Shown here: positions 5,817 through 37,915 of the stretch, one piece after another
Position numbering within the stretch: the stretch's first letter is position 1
How the letters are laid out: the number at the start of each line of letters is the position of its first letter
Made by a program: the position numbers and the translations under genes
Assembly (NCBI GenBank): GCA_018715925.1
Contig: DVKQ01000059.1
Location: 1 to 39,051, forward strand
DNA from: Candidatus Onthousia faecipullorum
Lineage (GTDB): Bacteria > Bacillota_I > Bacilli_A > RF39 > UBA660
DNA: 39,051 nt
Direction of reading: 5' to 3'
The notes under the pieces: generated by a model
The model's input: the letters and a program-made list of their open reading frames with translations, nothing else
What the model was told of the DNA's origin: nothing
The model's database searches: none

Positions 5817-7817
5817 ATGTCTATTAGTAAAGAAGAAATAGTAAAAGAAAAGAAGAAGTTACAAGATGTTTTAGAAAGACTAGATAAAGAAATTGATGAG
5901 TCTAGTAGTGATTTGTTCTTAAAGGAAGAAGAACTTATTAATTTTAGAAAGCTTAATTATGAAGATAAGTCATCTTTTGATAAAGCTGAATTTAATCAAG
6001 TAATGACTAGTGATAGTTTAGAAGCTTTAAGAGTACTTAGTAAAAGAAAATATTATAAATCTTTAATTAATATTAAAGATAAACCCTATTTTGCATCTTT
6101 TCTCTATAAAGATAATGAAGGTAATACTTATGATATTTATATGGCTTTAACTTATTTAAAAGATGAGAATTATGATAATATTTTATATGACTGGCGAAGT
6201 CCTATTTGTAGCTTGTTTTATGATTATGAAGTAGGACCTTGTAAATATAAAGTAGATGAATTTACTCATGAAGGAAATCTTTTATCTAAAAGACAATATA
6301 TAATTGAGAAGAGAGAACTAATAAGTGTTTTTGATAATTCTTTGAATATAGATGATGAATTATTACAAAAAGTAATCGCTACTACTGATAATGAAAAGAT
6401 GAAAAATATTGTTAATACTATTCAAGCAGAACAAAATAAGATAATTCGTAACTTAGATGATCATAATCTAATAGTACAAGGTATTGCAGGAAGTGGGAAA
6501 ACATCTGTGGCCTTACATCGTATTGCATTTCTTCTATATAGAATTAATAATTTAAGTTCTAATAATGTTTTAATCTTTTCTCCTAATAAGATTTTTTCAG
6601 AATATATTTCTAATGTCTTACCAGAGTTAGGAGAAGCGAATACACTTGAGACAACCTTTAGTGATTACTTAAGTTACTTCTTAAAAGAATATAAAAATAT
6701 AGAGAGTTTTCCATCATTTATTAGTAAATATTATAAAGGTAATAAAGAAGATTATGATATTATTAGATATAAACAAAGTAAAGAGATTATTAAAGACTTA
6801 GATAATTATATTAGTGATTTAATAAAGAGCTTTAAAGTTACTAATGATATAGAACTAGATAAGATTAATGAAGTTAGTAAAGAAGAACTAAATTACTTAC
6901 TTAAAGATAAATATAGTAGATTTCCTTTAGTAGAAAGAATTGATGAAGCTTCTAAATATTTATCATTAAAATATTATGGAACACCAGGTAAAAGAAAGGC
7001 ACAGATTAGAAAGTTAATTAAAGATAATATTAATGTCACTTTAAATATAAAAGATATTTATAAAGACTTCTTTAAAAGTAATTATGCTAAGTATAAGTTA
7101 GATATCAAAAATACTAAAGTAATAGGTTATGATGATGCTTTACTAGTATCATATTTAAAAGGTAAGTTATTTGGCTTTCCTTATAATAATTATATTAAAC
7201 AAGTAGTTATAGATGAAGCCCAGGACTATAATTACTTACAGTATGTAATTATTAAAGAGATGTTTAAGAAAGCTGACTTTACAATACTAGGTGATGTTAA
7301 TCAGAATATTAATCCTTATTATAAATATGATTCTTTAGAAGAATTAAAAGAGATATTTAATGATAGTAATTATTTAGAGTTATTAAAGACTTATAGATCT
7401 ACTAAAGAGATAATAGAATATACTAATAAGATATTAAATTTAGATTATGTTAATGCCATTAAGAAGAGTAATAATAAAGATGTAATAATTAGAAATCCTA
7501 AAGACATTAAAGAGTTATTACTTACTGATATAAGCACTCTTACTAATACATATAAATCTCTTGCTATCATCACTAAAGAAGATAGAGAGGCAGAAGTTAT
7601 TTTTGATTTGTTAAAAGATGATTTAGGTATTAGTTTATTAACAGAAGAGTCTAAAGCTTTTATTAAAGATTTAGTAGTAGTACCAAGTTATATTGCAAAA
7701 GGGTTAGAGTTTGATAGTGTTATCATAGTAGATAGTGATGAGTCTTTTAAGAAGAATAAATATCTATATTATGTCGCTTGTACGAGAGCAAGAGAGGAGC
7801 TTATTATCTATGAGTAA
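5817..7817 (+). CDS. helD: HelD-like UvrD/Rep-family helicase (RNA polymerase recycling factor family)
   Basis: N-terminal coiled coil, IVQGIAGSGKTSVALHRIAFLLY Walker A, VVIDEAQDYNYLQY, C-terminal YYVACTRAREELIIY. Confidence 0.85.
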   Translation: MSISKEEIVKEKKKLQDVLERLDKEIDESSSDLFLKEEELINFRKLNYEDKSSFDKAEFNQVMTSDSLEALRVLSKRKYYKSLINIKDKPYFASFLYKDNEGNTYDIYMALTYLKDENYDNILYDWRSPICSLFYDYEVGPCKYKVDEFTHEGNLLSKRQYIIEKRELISVFDNSLNIDDELLQKVIATTDNEKMKNIVNTIQAEQNKIIRNLDDHNLIVQGIAGSGKTSVALHRIAFLLYRINNLSSNNVLIFSPNKIFSEYISNVLPELGEANTLETTFSDYLSYFLKEYKNIESFPSFISKYYKGNKEDYDIIRYKQSKEIIKDLDNYISDLIKSFKVTNDIELDKINEVSKEELNYLLKDKYSRFPLVERIDEASKYLSLKYYGTPGKRKAQIRKLIKDNINVTLNIKDIYKDFFKSNYAKYKLDIKNTKVIGYDDALLVSYLKGKLFGFPYNNYIKQVVIDEAQDYNYLQYVIIKEMFKKADFTILGDVNQNINPYYKYDSLEELKEIFNDSNYLELLKTYRSTKEIIEYTNKILNLDYVNAIKKSNNKDVIIRNPKDIKELLLTDISTLTNTYKSLAIITKEDREAEVIFDLLKDDLGISLLTEESKAFIKDLVVVPSYIAKGLEFDSVIIVDSDESFKKNKYLYYVACTRAREELIIYE

Positions 7818-8295: not shown

Positions 8296-8375
8296 TTAAA
8301 TAAAATGACCAGGGGCTTCTAAAGTTTCCCTGGCACTACTGGTATTAATATACCATTTTAATTATAGTCTGTCAA
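8296..8375 (-). ncRNA. Candidate minus-strand small RNA with promoter and terminator hairpin
   Basis: Minus strand: TTGACA (8370-8375), 17-nt spacer, TG-G-TATATT (8347-8352), then CCAGGG-AAACTTTAGAAGC-CCCTGG hairpin and TCATTTTATTT. Confidence 0.5.
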
Positions 8376-8428
8376 AACAAATTTGGTAAGTCATAAATAA
8401 TTAAATAGCCAATTAGTAAAAACTTCAA

Positions 8429-8460
8429 AGATACTTTAATATAGGTATCTTTTTAATTTT
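8429..8460 (+). terminator. Rho-independent terminator
   Basis: AAAGATAC-tttaatatag-GTATCTTTTTAATTTTT. Confidence 0.75.
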
Positions 8461-8509
8461 TGGAGCAAAAAAATGTTTCTCGTTAATTATATATATGAGG
8501 AGAACATTT

Positions 8510-9040
8510 ATGAGCATGAAAAAAGTTGGCTCGATAGAAGTATATGAGCTTGATGAAAATTTAGACAAATATACTAGGAAAGAAAGGGAAGAGTATATAA
8601 ATGAACTCTTTAAACAAGAGTATCAGGGTAAAGAAATATCTTATCTTCTGAATGGGGAAGAGATAAAGGCTTTGATTAACCAAAAAACTAGAAGGAATTT
8701 TAGGGCATATCAGCATTCAGGAAAATATGAAACAAAAAAGTCATATAATGCTAGACAAAATATTGCTTTTAGTGATAATTATATTGATATGATATCGAAT
8801 ACGTCTTATAATTATTCAAAAGCTGAGAGCAAAGAACATCAAAAAAGACATCATAAAAATACTAGATGGCATTATTTTAACAAAATTATTAAATGTAATA
8901 ATTGTTTTTATTCTGTTAATATTGATGTGCTTGAAAAAGATAATAATTATTTTATATATAATACAAAATTAAAAGAAGTGGATGCTCCAGCATTAAACCG
9001 AAGTATGATATCCACCTCTTCTGTTATTAATATATCATAA
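8510..9040 (+). CDS. Orphan protein, possibly related to PBECR/LPD-type domains of polyvalent phage proteins
   Basis: ORF track 8495-9040; SD gaGGAGaacattt favours ATG 8510 (MSMKKVGSIEVYELDENLDKY). C-terminal HHKNTRWHYFNKIIKCNNCFYSVNIDVLEKDNNYFIYNTKL. Domain label is a weak impression only. Confidence 0.5.
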   Translation: MSMKKVGSIEVYELDENLDKYTRKEREEYINELFKQEYQGKEISYLLNGEEIKALINQKTRRNFRAYQHSGKYETKKSYNARQNIAFSDNYIDMISNTSYNYSKAESKEHQKRHHKNTRWHYFNKIIKCNNCFYSVNIDVLEKDNNYFIYNTKLKEVDAPALNRSMISTSSVINIS

Positions 9041-9058
9041 GTACTAAATGATACGCAA
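8965..9058 (-). ncRNA. Candidate small RNA unit A1
   Basis: Minus strand: TTGCGT (9053-9058), 18-nt spacer, TGA-TATATT (9029-9034). Hairpin arms 8974-8983 / 9010-9020, inner CUUCGG/CUGGAG helix, then CTTTTAATTTT tail. Confidence 0.55.
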
Positions 9059-9060
9059 GT

Positions 9061-9167
9061 AAAATTTAAAAAAATTAAAGAGGTGTTAATCCCGTTACAA
9101 GAAGTAACAGAATAAAATAACCACCTCTTCTATTGACAATATATCATCATTTGCAGATTATATGCAA
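9061..9167 (-). ncRNA. Candidate small RNA unit B1
   Basis: Minus strand: TTGCAT (9162-9167), 18-nt spacer, TGA-TATATT (9138-9143). Outer helix AAGAGGTG/CACCTCTT, inner GTTAC-ttctt-GTAAC, then TTTAATTTTTTT. Confidence 0.55.
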
Positions 9168-9264
9168 GGAAAAATTAAAAGAAGTGGATGCCCCAGTATT
9201 ATACCGAGGTGTGATATCCACTTCTCTTGCTGCTAATATATCATAAGCACTAAATAATATGTAA
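9168..9264 (-). ncRNA. Candidate small RNA unit A2
   Basis: Minus strand: TTACAT (9259-9264), 18-nt spacer, TGA-TATATT (9235-9240). AGAAGTGGAT/ATCCACTTCT, inner CCUCGG/CUGGGG, then CTTTTAATTTTTC. Confidence 0.55.
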
Positions 9265-9267
9265 GAG

Positions 9268-9369
9268 AAATTTGAAAAATAAAGAGGCGACGTTCCCGTT
9301 ACAAATGTAACAGAATGAAATTATCGCCTCTTCTACAAATAACATACATTAATATTGGTTAATAATCAA
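9268..9369 (-). ncRNA. Candidate small RNA unit B2
   Basis: Minus strand: TTGATT (9364-9369), 17-nt spacer, TATGTT (9341-9346). AAGAGGCGA/TCGCCTCTT, inner GTTAC-attt-GTAAC, then CTTTATTTTTC. Confidence 0.5.
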
Positions 9370-9423: not shown

Positions 9424-10089
9424 ATGGAAAAAATATTAATTGTAGAAGATGATGAAACTTTAAGAGATGAGCTATCTAATTTATTATCTAATTCAGGTTA
9501 TGAAGTATTAGTGTTAACAGACTTTAAAAATAGTAAAGAAGAGATTATTAAACTTAATCCAGATTTAATCCTTTTAGATATTAATATTCCCTATCTAAAT
9601 GGAGAAACATTACTTAAAAGTCTTCGTGATGATAAAATAAATACTCCAGTTATTATGCTTACTAGTAGTAATAAAACAATTGATGAAGTATTATCTATTA
9701 GTTATGGAGCAGATGATTATATTACTAAACCATATAACCCTACTATTCTTTTACTTAGAATTAATAATATATTTAAAAGGATGAAGAAAAGCTTTGATTA
9801 CTTAGAATATGATGATTTAAAGATATATCCTAATAAAGGAATTATTGTTAAAGATGGGGAAGAGTTTTATTTAACTAAAAATGAAATGTTAATATTTACT
9901 TATCTTTTAAATAATAGGGGTAGTATTGTAAATCGTGATGATCTAATGAGTTATTTATGGAATAGTGATCTTTATATAAATGATAATGCTTTAACAGTTA
10001 ATATTAGTAGATTAAGAGGAAAACTTTATGAGATGGGATACGATGACGTTATTGTTACAAGAAAGGGAGAAGGTTATTTATTAAAATGA
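9424..10089 (+). CDS. OmpR-family response regulator (BceR-like)
   Basis: EKILIVEDDETLRDELSNLL, LILLDINIPYLNGE, C-terminal winged-helix (LTVNISRLRGKL). Start taken as ATG 9424 within the ORF-track frame. Confidence 0.9.
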   Translation: MEKILIVEDDETLRDELSNLLSNSGYEVLVLTDFKNSKEEIIKLNPDLILLDINIPYLNGETLLKSLRDDKINTPVIMLTSSNKTIDEVLSISYGADDYITKPYNPTILLLRINNIFKRMKKSFDYLEYDDLKIYPNKGIIVKDGEEFYLTKNEMLIFTYLLNNRGSIVNRDDLMSYLWNSDLYINDNALTVNISRLRGKLYEMGYDDVIVTRKGEGYLLK

Positions 10090-11093
10090 AACTAAGTACT
10101 TATTTAAAAGATAAACTATATGCCTTTATAATCTTTATTAGTTATATAATTATTTTAATATTATTCTTAATCGCTTTAAAATTATCTAGTAGTATCATTA
10201 TCTTTATGGCTGTTTTTACTATTGTAATCTTTTTTGTTATTTTATTTTTTGATTACTTTAGGAAAAGAAATTTCTATAATGAATTACTTGATAAATTAAA
10301 TACATTAGATAAAAAATATCTTTTGATAGAGATGTTACTTGAACCAAACTTTTTAGAAGGTAGGATACTTTATGATGTTTTAGATGAAGTTAATAAAAAT
10401 GAACATGATTTGATTAGTAATTTAAAAAATAAACAAGAAGACTTTAAAGAATATATAGAGTTATGGATACACGAAGTTAAACTTCCTCTTGCAAGTCTTA
10501 CCTTAATTAATAGAAAAGATAAAAATACTTTAAGAGAGTTAAAGAGAATAGAAGATGATGTAGAACAAATTCTTTATTATGTAAGATGTGAAAATGCTAA
10601 TAATGATTATTTAATTAAAGAGTGGAATCTTGATACTATTATTAAAAATGTAGCATTAAGAAATAAAGATGATTTACTTGCCTTAGGTATAGACTTTAAA
10701 GTAGATAATTGTAATTTAAGAGTATTAACAGATTCTAAATGGTTAGAGTTTATTATTAATCAGATTGTTAGTAATAGTATTAAATATAAAAAAGATAAAG
10801 ATTCTTCTTTAGAAATAAATGGTGAAGATTTTGATAATTATGTTACTATTACAATCTATGATAATGGTAAAGGTATTAGTAAAAGTGATTTACCAAGAGT
10901 TTTTAATAAGACTTTTACAGGTAATAATGGAAGAAGTACTAGTTCTAAATCTACAGGTATGGGGCTTTATTTATGTAAAGAGTTATGTGAAAAATTAGGA
11001 CATAAAATAGAGATTGATTCTAAAGTGGATGAATATACTAAAGTTACTATTACAATTTATAAAAAGGATTTTTATAATGTTACAAAAAAGTAA
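10086..11093 (+). CDS. Intramembrane-sensing histidine kinase (BceS-like)
   Basis: Two short N-terminal TMs, WIHEVKLPLASL, DNGKGISKSDLPRVFNKTFTG, STGMGLYLCKELCEKLG. Confidence 0.88.
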   Translation: MKLSTYLKDKLYAFIIFISYIIILILFLIALKLSSSIIIFMAVFTIVIFFVILFFDYFRKRNFYNELLDKLNTLDKKYLLIEMLLEPNFLEGRILYDVLDEVNKNEHDLISNLKNKQEDFKEYIELWIHEVKLPLASLTLINRKDKNTLRELKRIEDDVEQILYYVRCENANNDYLIKEWNLDTIIKNVALRNKDDLLALGIDFKVDNCNLRVLTDSKWLEFIINQIVSNSIKYKKDKDSSLEINGEDFDNYVTITIYDNGKGISKSDLPRVFNKTFTGNNGRSTSSKSTGMGLYLCKELCEKLGHKIEIDSKVDEYTKVTITIYKKDFYNVTKK

Positions 11094-11163
11094 GATTCTG
11101 TAAGGTTAAACAGACGACAAAAGACATAAATAGTAGTATATTTCTATTCGAGGAGGAGAAATT

Positions 11164-11931
11164 ATGTCAAATTTATTAAAGATTGATAATATTGAGAAGT
11201 ATTATGGATCAAAAAGTGGTTTAACTAAAGCGATTAATAATATTTCTTTTGAAGTAAGTAAAGGTGAATTTGTCGCTATTATGGGATCATCTGGTAGTGG
11301 TAAAACAACTTTACTTAATTGTATTTCTACTATTGATAGAGTAACTTCAGGTCATATTTATATGAATGGTGTTGATATTACTAAATTAAAGGGAAATGAT
11401 TTAAATAAGTTTAGAAGGGAAGAGTTAGGTTTTATCTTTCAAGATTTTAATCTATTAGATACCTTAACTGCTTATGAAAATATTGCTTTAGCTCTTTCTA
11501 TTCAAGATAAAGGATATCAAGAAATAGATAAACTTATTAAAGATACTGCTAAAAAATTAGGAATAACTCATATTTTAAACAAATATCCATATCAAATGAG
11601 TGGTGGTGAGAAGCAAAGAGTTGCTAGTGCACGTGCTATTATTACAGAGCCTAAATTAATACTTGCAGATGAACCTACTGGTGCTTTAGATTCTAAATCC
11701 AGTAAAATGTTACTCGATAGTTTTAATTACTTAAATGATGAGTTAAATGCTACTATTTTAATGGTTACTCACGATGCTTTTACAGCTAGTTATGCTAAAA
11801 GAGTAATATTTATTAAAGATGGAGAGATTTTCAATGAAATTATAAGGGGAGATAAGAGTCGAAAAGAGTTCTTTGATGAGATTATTGATGTAGTTACCCT
11901 TTTAGGAGGGGATTTAAATGATGCTCTTTAA
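11164..11931 (+). CDS. ABC transporter ATP-binding protein (BceA-like)
   Basis: [44 protein letters not shown]. Confidence 0.92.
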   Translation: MSNLLKIDNIEKYYGSKSGLTKAINNISFEVSKGEFVAIMGSSGSGKTTLLNCISTIDRVTSGHIYMNGVDITKLKGNDLNKFRREELGFIFQDFNLLDTLTAYENIALALSIQDKGYQEIDKLIKDTAKKLGITHILNKYPYQMSGGEKQRVASARAIITEPKLILADEPTGALDSKSSKMLLDSFNYLNDELNATILMVTHDAFTASYAKRVIFIKDGEIFNEIIRGDKSRKEFFDEIIDVVTLLGGDLNDAL

Positions 11932-13978
11932 ATTAGCTTTTAAAAATATTAAGAAGAGTGTTAGTGACTATGCTATTTACTTTTTTACTTTAGTACTTGG
12001 TGTTGCGATATTCTATGTTTTTAATGCAATAGACTCACAGACAGCGATGATGAGGGTATCAGAGAGTACTAGAGATATAATAGACTTAATGTTAAATATG
12101 TTAAGTGGAGTATCAGTCTTTGTTTCTTTTGTTTTAGGTTTCCTTATAATTTATGCTTCAAGATTTTTAATGAAACGAAGGAATAAAGAGTTTGGTATTT
12201 ATATGACTCTTGGGATGAGTAAAGGTAAAATTTCTAAAATACTAGTAGTAGAAACATTCTTAATTGGTTTATTATCACTTGTAGTAGGACTAGTACTTGG
12301 TTGTGCTTTATCTCAAGTTATGAGTGTTATTGTTGCTAATATGTTTGAAGCAGACCTTACCGAGTTTACCTTTGTTATAAGTACTAATGCTATTATTAAG
12401 ACGATAATTTACTTTAGTATAATGTACTTACTTGTTATGATATTTAATACTATTAGTGTATCACGTTGTAAGTTAATAGATTTAATAAATGCTAATAAGA
12501 AGACGGAAACTGTTAAGTTAAAAAATCCTTATCTATGTATAGTTATCTTTGTGATAGCAGTTGTTATGTTAGGATATGCGTATTATCAAGTAACAGGTAA
12601 TGTAGAAAACTTAAGAGAAACTTGGCAAGTGTTTTTACCAATAGGTCTTGGTGCTGTAGGTACATTTTTACTATTTTTCTCACTATCAGGACTTGTCTTA
12701 AGAGTATTACAACACTTTAAGAAATTCTATTATAAAGGCTTAAATAGTTTTACGATAAAACAGTTTAGTAGTAAGATTAATACAACAGTATTTTCTATGA
12801 CTGTTATATGTTTAATGTTATTTGTAACAATCTGTGTCTTTTCTAGTTGCATGTCTATGAAAAATGCTATGACATCTAACTTACAAGAACTAGCACCTAT
12901 TGATATCCAGTTTTTAAAAACTAAAAATATACCAAAAGAGTATATGGAAGAGTTTGGATATAGTGAACAGCAGGTAAATAATTCTTATATAAGTATAGAA
13001 GAGGATTTAAATAGTGTAGGATTTAATATAAATGATTATTATAAAGATATAGTAAATATTAATACTTATACAACACCTAATCTTACTTTAAAAGATACTC
13101 TAGGTAGTACTTATAGTTATATGAAAGAAAAATATCCATTTATGACTTATGATGCAATAGAAGAGATTGTTACTGTTAGTGACTATAATAAAGTTGCCAA
13201 ACTACTAGGACTTGATACTTATACTTTAGACTCTGATGAATATCTAGTAATTGCAGATTATGATAATATGGTAAGTGTTAGAAATGCTGCCTTAGGATTA
13301 AATACTCCTATTATTATTGATGGTAAGACTTATTATCCTAAGTATGATAAATGTAAAGATGGTTTTTTAGTAATATCTAATAGTCATATTAATGCTGGTG
13401 TCTTTATTGTACCAGATGATGCTGTTAGTAATTTAACAGTAGAAGAAGAGTATATGTATGCTAATTATAAAGCAGATACAGAAGAGGAAAAACAAGAAAT
13501 AGAAGACCTTTTGATTAGTAAAAGTGATGCTCTTACAAATATTGGTTCAACAATAAGTGCTGGTACAAGACTTTCTATATATGAAGGTAGTGTAGGTCTT
13601 GGTGCTTTAGTAACTTTTATTGGTCTATATCTTGGTGTAATCTTTTTAATAAGTAGTGCAGCGATACTTGCTTTAAAAGAGTTAAGTGAAGCGACAGAAA
13701 ATAAAGAAAGATTTAAGATGTTAAGAAAAATTGGGGCCGATGAAAAACTTATTAATAAAGCTTTATTTAGACAAATAGCCATATTCTTCTTAGCACCTCT
13801 TGTAATTGCTATCATCCATTCTATCTTTGGTATTATGTTTTGTAATTATATCTTAGAAACATTTGGTAATGAAAGTCTGTTGCTTGCAATAGTCTTAACA
13901 GCATTACTTCTTGTAATAATATATGGAGGATACTTGCTAATTACATATTATTGTAGTAAGAGAATAATTAAAGAATAG
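11918..13978 (+). CDS. ABC transporter permease (BceB-like, FtsX superfamily)
   Basis: Multi-TM with large extracellular loop; FKLAFKNIKKSVSDYAIYFFTLVLGVAIFYVFNAID is typical of BceB-type permeases. Confidence 0.88.
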   Translation: MMLFKLAFKNIKKSVSDYAIYFFTLVLGVAIFYVFNAIDSQTAMMRVSESTRDIIDLMLNMLSGVSVFVSFVLGFLIIYASRFLMKRRNKEFGIYMTLGMSKGKISKILVVETFLIGLLSLVVGLVLGCALSQVMSVIVANMFEADLTEFTFVISTNAIIKTIIYFSIMYLLVMIFNTISVSRCKLIDLINANKKTETVKLKNPYLCIVIFVIAVVMLGYAYYQVTGNVENLRETWQVFLPIGLGAVGTFLLFFSLSGLVLRVLQHFKKFYYKGLNSFTIKQFSSKINTTVFSMTVICLMLFVTICVFSSCMSMKNAMTSNLQELAPIDIQFLKTKNIPKEYMEEFGYSEQQVNNSYISIEEDLNSVGFNINDYYKDIVNINTYTTPNLTLKDTLGSTYSYMKEKYPFMTYDAIEEIVTVSDYNKVAKLLGLDTYTLDSDEYLVIADYDNMVSVRNAALGLNTPIIIDGKTYYPKYDKCKDGFLVISNSHINAGVFIVPDDAVSNLTVEEEYMYANYKADTEEEKQEIEDLLISKSDALTNIGSTISAGTRLSIYEGSVGLGALVTFIGLYLGVIFLISSAAILALKELSEATENKERFKMLRKIGADEKLINKALFRQIAIFFLAPLVIAIIHSIFGIMFCNYILETFGNESLLLAIVLTALLLVIIYGGYLLITYYCSKRIIKE

Positions 13979-14238: not shown

Positions 14239-14493
14239 ATGAATAAAATAAAAGATGAAAAAAGAATAATGGAATTAGAATACAAATTAATATGTGATTT
14301 TATAAAACTAAGGGGTGAATTAGGTCTTAGTCAACAAAAAATGGCTGATGAAGTTGGAGTAGTAAGAGAAATGATAGCAGTTATTGAGAATAGAAAAAAA
14401 CATCCACAGATAAATACTTTAATTAAAATTTTGGAACCTTTTGGTTACACTTTATCAATAACAAAAATAAAGGAGGAAGATAATGAAAAATAA
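14239..14493 (+). CDS. XRE-family HTH regulator
   Basis: FIKLRGELGLSQQKMADEVGVVREMIAVIENRKKHPQINTLIKIL. Confidence 0.85.
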   Translation: MNKIKDEKRIMELEYKLICDFIKLRGELGLSQQKMADEVGVVREMIAVIENRKKHPQINTLIKILEPFGYTLSITKIKEEDNEK

Positions 14494-15313
14494 TGTTATA
14501 ACAGTAAAAGATATTAAAATTTCGATTGTTAATGATAATAATGAAGATTACATTTGTATTTCCGATATTGCAAAGGGTAAGAGTGATAATTCACGTGCTG
14601 CAGATGTTATCAGAAATTGGTTGAGGAATAGATATACATTAGAATTTTTATCTACTTGGGAACAATTAAATAATCCTAATTTTAAAGTGTTCGAATCTGA
14701 ACACTTTATAGAACAGGTTGGATTATTAACTTTTACGCCAAGTGTTACAGAGTGGACTGAAAGGACTAATGCTATAGGTTTGTATGTTAAAAGAGGAAAA
14801 TATGGAGGAACTTATGCTCATAAAGATATTGCTTTTGAATTTGCTTCGGCAATAAGCCCTGTATTTAAACTATATTTAATAAAAGAATTTCAACGATTAA
14901 AAGCAGAGGAAAGCAAAAACAAAGATTGGAATGCTAAGAGGCTACTTAGTAAAAATAATTATTTAATTCATACAGATGCTATTAAAAATTATATATTGCC
15001 TAATACTGATTATTATAAAGATAAGAGCTGGTTAAAATATGCAGAAGAAGCAGATATTTTAAATGTTATTCTGTTTAAGACAACTGCTAAAGAATGGAGA
15101 AAATTAAATAAAGAACTTGCTAAGACTTCTAATATGCGTGATTATGCTACTATAAATGAATTAACAGTTTTATCTAATTTAGAGAGTCATAATGCTGAAC
15201 TAATTAAAGAAGGAAAGACTAAAGAAGAAAGATTTAATATATTATCTTCAATTGCTAGTTATCAACTTAATGTCTTAAATAAAGCAAGTGAGATAAAGAA
15301 AATAGAATCATAA
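14483..15313 (+). CDS. KilA-N domain-containing protein
   Basis: YICISDIAKGKSDNSRAADVIRNWLRNRYTLEFLSTWEQLNNPNFK...GTYAHKDIAFEFASAISPVFKLYLIKEFQRLK. Confidence 0.85.
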   Translation: MKNNVITVKDIKISIVNDNNEDYICISDIAKGKSDNSRAADVIRNWLRNRYTLEFLSTWEQLNNPNFKVFESEHFIEQVGLLTFTPSVTEWTERTNAIGLYVKRGKYGGTYAHKDIAFEFASAISPVFKLYLIKEFQRLKAEESKNKDWNAKRLLSKNNYLIHTDAIKNYILPNTDYYKDKSWLKYAEEADILNVILFKTTAKEWRKLNKELAKTSNMRDYATINELTVLSNLESHNAELIKEGKTKEERFNILSSIASYQLNVLNKASEIKKIES

Positions 15314-37633: not shown

Positions 37634-37915
37634 TCAAAAACATTGATGAAAAGAAGTAACTATTTCTAATCTTTAAAAGAGAGCTTGTGGTTGGTGGAAA
37701 CAAGTAAAGTGTGGATAGTGAATAACATTTCGGAGTGCTTAAAGAAATTAAGTAGACTAAGCCGGGTGCAGACCGTTACATTTGCTAGATTTGATAGAAT
37801 CGAAAAAGTGATTATAAAGTTAATAATTCCTTTATAATAAATTGGGTGGCACCGCGGAAGACTAGTTTCGTCCCATAGTACTATAAGTATTATGGTATAA
37901 GACTAGTCTTTTATT
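37634..37915 (+). promoter_or_regulatory. T-box riboswitch leader
   Basis: AGAGAGCTTGTGGTTGGTGGAAACAAG stem I, GGGTGGCACCGCGG (37844-37857), TTCGTCCC, terminator AAGACTAGT...ACTAGTCTTTTATTATTT. Confidence 0.93.

What the first reader, a model, noticed from the sequence alone, without database searches (positions are those of the whole stretch)
8296..9369. Orphan ORF bracketed by minus-strand small RNA units: possible RNA-controlled toxin/defence cassette
ORF 8510-9040 sits between a fifth minus-strand RNA-like unit (8296-8375, TTGACA-N17-TATATT plus CCAGGG hairpin) and the A/B array. Unit A1 is antisense to the ORF's last ~60 nt. The ORF's SD lies in an inverted repeat (AAATGTTTCTC / GAGGAGAACATTT, 8471-8509) that could block ribosome access, as in several type I toxin mRNAs. 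Together: a translationally occluded ORF plus multiple small structured RNAs, some convergent. This resembles but does not match the type I (single antisense RNA) and type III (same-strand repeat RNA upstream of toxin) layouts.
Basis: inference. Interest (0 to 1): 0.85.

Follow-up and report, generated by a model that had tools for sequence, protein, structure and literature searches.

The report
Shuffling ORF with antisense hairpin-RNA array
In one genus of uncultured bacteria, a gene whose second half is swapped between species always sits tail to tail with a row of two to four tiny hairpin RNA genes that decay when the gene is lost, which looks like a new layout of RNA-controlled toxin but has not been tested in the laboratory.

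Summary
The anatomy is real. Four minus-strand units (8964-9340), each with promoter, covarying hairpin and U-rich tail, lie convergent to ORF 8510-9040; the last is antisense to the ORF's 3' end. The ORF is known only from this genus and this locus, and 12 of 12 ORF loci (intact or broken) have 2-4 such units, of three loop types in varying order. Five genomes have the array without the ORF; there 7 of 9 units carry defects, against 1 of 32 beside an ORF. One genome has the neighbouring bce genes with neither. The ORF is broken in three genomes beside intact arrays. Its promoter and first 58 codons are nearly identical between species; the rest is an exchanged, diverged cassette weakly resembling LPD3. 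The 'fifth unit' is a different RNA that flanks Abi_2/AbiD genes of this genus and is orphaned here; ORF and abi never co-occur at this locus. Best reading: a site that swaps RNA-linked toxin or defence genes, where the array RNAs restrain the ORF product, probably by binding the protein as in type III toxin-antitoxin systems, but from a downstream, antisense array of separately transcribed RNAs. Cis-antisense control is the main rival. Toxicity is untested; SD occlusion is doubtful.

The parts
8302..8340 (-). 'Fifth unit': hairpin RNA with core AAACUUUnGAAGC, promoter TTGACA(8375-8370)-N17-TATATT(8352-8347); relative of the RNA flanking Abi_2/AbiD genes; orphan here (abi gene absent at the locus)
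   Evidence: Same element beside 289-aa Abi_2 genes in G008, G010, G011, G013, G021, G032; covarying stem; promoter scan 11/12; no Rfam match
8427..8461 (+). Terminator-like hairpin that closes the upstream gene block; 5' border of the conserved ORF block
   Evidence: Read from sequence; present before the ORF in relatives whatever the upstream gene, and a version is kept in G029 and G022, which have no ORF
8471..8509 (.). Inverted repeat AAATGTTTCTC / GAGGAGAACATTT around the probable -10 region and SD
   Evidence: 2 of 200 shuffles fold as well; conserved in relatives, but inside a block that is nearly invariant anyway
8510..8683 (+). Constant N-terminal part of the ORF (codons 1-58)
   Evidence: 88-100% DNA identity between species per 50-nt bin up to 8650; pN 0-0.024
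8684..8965 (+). Variable part of the ORF, LPD3-like (weak), exchanged between species
   Evidence: pS about 0.4-0.6 between most pairs, 0.00-0.02 between some genomes whose flanks differ; block of 100% identity G030/G034; LPD3 14.3 bits, residues 23-150 on model 3-114/114, below cut-off 27
8964..9028 (-). Array unit A1 (type A), promoter TTGCGT-N18-TATATT (9058..9029); antisense to the ORF 3' end
   Evidence: R1 79.1 bits; fold z -4.6
9069..9137 (-). Array unit B1 (type B), promoter TTGCAT-N18-TATATT (9167..9138)
   Evidence: R1 64.8 bits; fold z -5.5
9170..9234 (-). Array unit A2 (type A), promoter TTACAT-N18-TATATT (9264..9235)
   Evidence: R1 81.1 bits; fold z -4.4
9273..9340 (-). Array unit B2 (type B), promoter TTGATT-N17-TATGTT (9369..9341), divergent from bceR
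   Evidence: R1 64.1 bits; fold z -5.7
9424..10089 (+). bceR-like response regulator bordering the array (landmark, not judged to be part of the system)
   Evidence: Pfam Response_reg + Trans_reg_C; orthologue without array or ORF in G029

Best explanation
A type III-like toxin-antitoxin or abortive-infection module in an unusual layout. The 176-aa ORF makes a growth-inhibiting protein with a constant N-terminus and an exchangeable C-terminal effector part. The minus-strand array makes 2-4 separate ~60-70-nt hairpin RNAs, each with its own promoter and terminator, that keep the protein inactive, most likely by binding it; several copies give excess antitoxin. Release, for example by a phage that stops host transcription, would free the toxin. 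Shown by sequence: the parts, their covariation, obligatory co-occurrence, decay of the array without the ORF, repeated ORF inactivation, cassette exchange. Inferred: transcription of the units, toxicity, RNA-protein binding, defence role, trigger.
For: In same-genus genomes the ORF occurs only at this locus and in 12 of 12 genomes with 2-4 units. Structure is conserved with compensatory changes (63 cells, 9 pairs), as expected if structure rather than complementarity is recognised. Array without ORF: 5 genomes, 7 of 9 units with a defect in promoter, stem or U-tract, against 1 of 32 next to an ORF. ORF broken at codon 4 (G026), codon 9 (G006) and about codon 63 (G024) beside intact arrays, as for a costly toxin whose antidote is kept. 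The C-terminal part plus the first two units moved together between G030 and G034. The locus otherwise holds an Abi_2/AbiD gene with its own RNA, and abi and ORF never co-occur here, so it looks like an exchange site for defence-type genes. AbiF is a known toxin neutralised by direct binding of a hairpin RNA (PMC12373285).
Against: No test of toxicity and no solved or confidently predicted fold. The protein reaches the cut-off of no family in Pfam, NCBIfam or PADLOC. The array is downstream and antisense, unlike type III loci as described. The same 4-unit array serves two ORFs with very different C-terminal parts (G000/G015), so there is no strict variant-to-RNA matching. The decay statistic rests on five related genomes. 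Co-occurrence alone is not significant. No transcript data.
Confidence: 0.42

Rival explanations
1. Type I-like antisense control. The last unit, convergent with the ORF, pairs with the ORF mRNA 3' end (or blocks its transcription), and the other units add trans-acting antisense copies, lowering translation or stability of the mRNA.
For: In every ORF locus the last unit overlaps the ORF 3' end. A1 is fully complementary to the ORF 3' end, A2 pairs at -78 and B1 at -39.6 kcal/mol, well beyond shuffles.
Against: B2 is barely beyond chance (z -2.0) and loop types A, B and C differ, so most units are not kept complementary to the ORF end. Stems covary to keep the fold. No complementarity to the ribosome-binding site. 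Pairing of A2 and B1 may be a by-product of repeat homology.
Confidence: 0.25
2. The array is a stand-alone small-RNA regulator family (or a regulator of the bce locus or of the Abi gene) that happens to sit beside the ORF.
For: All resolved arrays adjoin bceR. The array is found without the ORF beside abi genes and reads in the same direction as them in G008, G011 and G032.
Against: G029 has the bce orthologue without the array. abi genes elsewhere in the genus have only the AAACUUUnGAAGC RNA and no array. Units decay when the ORF is gone. No pairing with the bceR 5' region beyond chance.
Confidence: 0.15
3. The ORF is an immunity, anti-restriction or other benign LPD3-type protein and the array is mainly a set of insulating terminators and promoters.
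For: LPD3 comes from polyvalent proteins of phages and conjugative elements, and its function is unknown (PMC5512222).
Against: Terminators do not need their own promoters, covarying inner helices or three loop types. The ORF is repeatedly broken while arrays persist. Units decay without the ORF.
Confidence: 0.12

Closest known systems
Type III toxin-antitoxin systems (ToxIN, CptIN, TenpIN)
   Same: Protein gene next to a repeated structured RNA; several RNA copies; plausible RNA-protein neutralisation
   Different: Array downstream and on the opposite strand; each unit has its own promoter and terminator instead of one processed precursor; two-helix hairpins; no ToxN-family protein
AbiF/AbiD (Abi_2) with its antitoxin RNA (RCd22, abiF motif RF03085)
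   Same: The fifth unit is such an Abi-associated RNA (39 nt, own promoter), and abi genes occupy this very locus in sister genomes
   Different: The ORF is not Abi_2; the array RNAs differ from both the fifth unit and RF03085; the fifth unit itself is not hit by RF03085
Type I toxin-antitoxin systems
   Same: Convergent small RNA antisense to the 3' end of the ORF
   Different: 176-aa charged protein instead of a small hydrophobic peptide; several divergent RNA copies; structure conserved rather than complementarity
Polymorphic toxins / LPD3 domain of polyvalent proteins
   Same: Constant N-terminal part with an exchangeable C-terminal part; weak full-length LPD3 resemblance
   Different: Stand-alone, no secretion or phage head domain seen, no immunity gene; below the Pfam cut-off

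Membership tests
Type III toxin-antitoxin | RNA repeats upstream of the toxin in one operon from a single promoter (PMC5086642) | tested here: not met
   Units lie downstream, on the opposite strand, each with its own promoter-like sequence
Type III toxin-antitoxin | Toxin homologous to ToxN/CptN/TenpN endoribonucleases | tested here: not met
   No such match in Pfam or NCBIfam; PDB profile search gave nothing significant
Type III toxin-antitoxin | RNA binds and inhibits the protein toxin | not testable with these tools
   Needs co-expression and binding assays; indirect support only
Type III toxin-antitoxin | Antitoxin folds as a pseudoknot | tested here: inconclusive
   Consensus fold is a two-helix hairpin; pseudoknots were not modelled
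Type I toxin-antitoxin | Small RNA antisense to the toxin mRNA | tested here: met
   By the last unit through its position; A2 and B1 through repeat homology
Type I toxin-antitoxin | Small hydrophobic membrane toxin | tested here: not met
   176 aa, rich in charged residues
AbiF/AbiD RNA-linked system (fifth unit) | Structured RNA adjacent to an Abi_2 gene | tested here: met
   Met in sister genomes; in the window the abi gene is missing
AbiF/AbiD RNA-linked system (fifth unit) | RF03085 abiF motif | tested here: not met
   No match in Rfam scans, E up to 10 for the window and up to 1 for relatives
LPD3 (PF18798) | Score above the gathering cut-off | tested here: not met
   14.3 bits against 27, though over the full model; 3 of 10 homologues hit it at E<=0.5
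PBECR/BECR RNases | BECR fold with helix His and strand Ser/Thr | tested here: inconclusive
   Models too poor to judge (mean pLDDT 43 and 50)

The most novel reading that the evidence does not exclude
A new class of RNA-neutralised toxin: a polymorphic, exchangeable effector controlled by a downstream antisense array of separately transcribed hairpin RNAs with several specificities, where the set of loop types in the array lets a cell tolerate or acquire different effector variants.
Probability: 0.25. Interest if true: 0.85.

Novelty: new variant of a known kind. Interest (0 to 1): 0.62.

Why it matters
If the RNAs neutralise the ORF product, this would be an RNA antitoxin layout outside the type I and type III plans. 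It would have built-in copy-number and loop-type variation, in a locus that also hosts Abi_2/AbiD genes, the proteins thought to have given rise to Cas13. It would make directly testable how RNA antitoxin arrays diversify, and whether orphan arrays and orphan Abi RNAs act as antidote reservoirs.

Tried and rejected
AlphaFold2 on the full ORF (pLDDT 43) and on the LPD3-like part (pLDDT 50): too poor, so no fold search was run. PDB profile search: nothing significant. Pfam, PHROGs, NCBIfam and PADLOC on the ORF: only sub-threshold or no hits. Phage, plasmid and viral-contig searches for the ORF: no true relative; the four viral hits match 33 residues of an unrelated short ORF. Attempts to collect LPD3 relatives for a profile comparison failed. 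Rfam: no family for the array; weak ctRNA and Ysr201 hits are far below cut-off. A link between the array and the bce genes was rejected because G029 has bce without the array. The idea that the fifth unit is an array member was rejected on sequence and structure. Strict pairing of ORF variant with array type was rejected by G000/G015.

Full report
Setting. The window is contig 33 of a 1.41-Mb assembly. The closest named relatives are assemblies labelled uncultured Bacilli/Tenericutes. Upstream genes on the + strand are HelD-like (5817-7817) and GreA-like (to 8286); downstream is a BceRS-AB-like block (9424-13978).

What is there. Four minus-strand units lie at 8964-9340. Each has a TTGCAT-like -35, 17-18 nt, TATATT (one TATGTT), a hairpin of two stacked helices and a U-rich tail. 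Thirty-six units from 13 loci were collected, 32 of them distinct. RNAalifold gives 18 pairs; 9 pairs change on both sides in at least one sequence, 98.6% of cells are paired, and the covariation score is 0.493 against 0.274 in shuffles and at most 0.21 for slid pairings. Three loop types recur: A (CCUCGG..CUGGGG), B (CUGUUAC..GUAACGGG) and C (CCUCGA..UUGGGG). Arrays have 2-4 units and differ in order and number between genomes. Strong matches to the model occur only at this locus in 100 related genomes; the two best matches elsewhere, when inspected, look like ordinary terminators.

The ORF. Homologues exist in same-genus genomes only, at the same place, upstream of the array and bceR: 12 genomes carry the gene, intact or broken, and G008 carries only the 3' remnant that overlaps a unit. 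The last unit overlaps the 3' end of every ORF. The stretch 8450-8650 is 88-100% identical between species per 50-nt bin, mostly 96% or more, while the following ~300 nt fall to 38-92%. Codons 1-58 show pN 0-0.024. Codons 59-150 show pS of about 0.4-0.6 between most genomes, including pairs whose bceR pS is only 0.10-0.28, and 0.00-0.02 in three pairs. G030 and G034 are 100% identical from about codon 60 through codon 160 and 90-98% through the first two array units, while flanks are near 66-91%. This is cassette exchange between conserved flanks. The exchanged part resembles LPD3 weakly but over the full model. LPD3 is a domain of unknown function from polyvalent proteins (PMC5512222).

Coupling of ORF and array. 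Among genomes with this bce locus, 12 have ORF and array, 5 have the array without the ORF (G008, G011, G022, G025, G032), 1 has neither (G029), and five others end at a contig edge at or near the array. Among 9 units of ORF-less genomes, 7 show a defect: a changed -10 (G025, G032), wrong promoter spacing (G022), two or more broken pairs (G011, G025, G032) or a shortened U-tract (G008, G022, G025, G032). Among 32 units beside an ORF only one does (TATGTT in the window's own B2) (Fisher 1.2e-5 by unit, 0.0014 by genome; both to be discounted because the genomes are related and the rule was set after looking). Co-occurrence alone is not significant (Fisher 0.33). The ORF is broken at codon 4 in G026, codon 9 in G006 and about codon 63 in G024, with intact arrays beside it; assembly errors cannot be fully excluded.

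The fifth unit. In G008, G011 and G032 the position next to the array is taken by a 289-aa Abi_2 gene (Pfam 140 bits, PADLOC AbiD 165 bits), preceded on the same strand by the same CCAGGG hairpin RNA as in the window. Other Abi_2 genes of the genus carry a covarying version (ACUUAGG stem, same AAACUUUnGAAGC core) upstream and often a second copy downstream. In C. difficile an Abi_2 protein, AbiF, is toxic and is neutralised by direct binding of an RNA with two 33-35-nt motifs (PMC12373285). The fifth unit is therefore probably the antidote RNA of a lost abi gene. Seven ORF-bearing genomes, including this one, keep it without abi at the locus. It is not matched by RF03085.

Mechanism. The pattern of ORF never without array, array sometimes alone and then decaying, ORF often broken, and effector part exchanged is what a toxin-antitoxin pair would leave. 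Conservation of structure with changing sequence favours recognition by a protein. Antisense action remains possible because the last unit is complementary to the ORF end and A2 and B1 are partly so. My estimates are type III-like 0.42, antisense 0.25, unrelated regulator 0.15, benign ORF 0.12. None of the functional steps has been tested.

SD occlusion. The repeat 8471-8509 is real but overlaps the likely promoter between the terminator-like hairpin 8427-8461 and the SD. Whether its left arm is in the mRNA depends on a start site that is not known.

Noticed in passing
window 8302-8340 (-); L021, L047, L065, L067: Hairpin RNA with core AAACUUUnGAAGC flanks Abi_2/AbiD genes of this genus on both sides; an Abi-linked RNA not covered by Rfam RF03085, and an orphan in this window and in six other ORF-bearing genomes.
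   Followed up: partly
L139:1-55 and L140:2265-2315: In G030 the array seems interrupted by what look like the terminal inverted repeats of an insertion element, splitting the contig.
   Followed up: no
array units, window 8964-9340 (-): The 5' arm (GAGGUGGAU) resembles a Shine-Dalgarno sequence and the 3' arm (AUCCACUUCUUU, AACACCUCUUU) the 3' end of 16S rRNA; could be mimicry or simply the purine/pyrimidine bias of terminator stems.
   Followed up: no
L063 and L087, upstream of Abi_2 genes: Other Abi_2 genes carry quite different hairpins directly upstream (CUUCGGU..ACCGAAG; CCCACCGCG..GGUGGG), so Abi_2-linked RNAs are diverse in this class.
   Followed up: no
between greA and bceR in G000 and relatives (L123-L139): A variable gene slot: uncharacterised 140- and 133-aa proteins, a 125-aa oxidase-like protein, a radical-SAM/SPASM protein, Abi_2 or the ORF.
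   Followed up: partly
window 14483-15313; 37634-37878: KilA-N domain protein and a T-box leader (138.8 bits).
   Followed up: no
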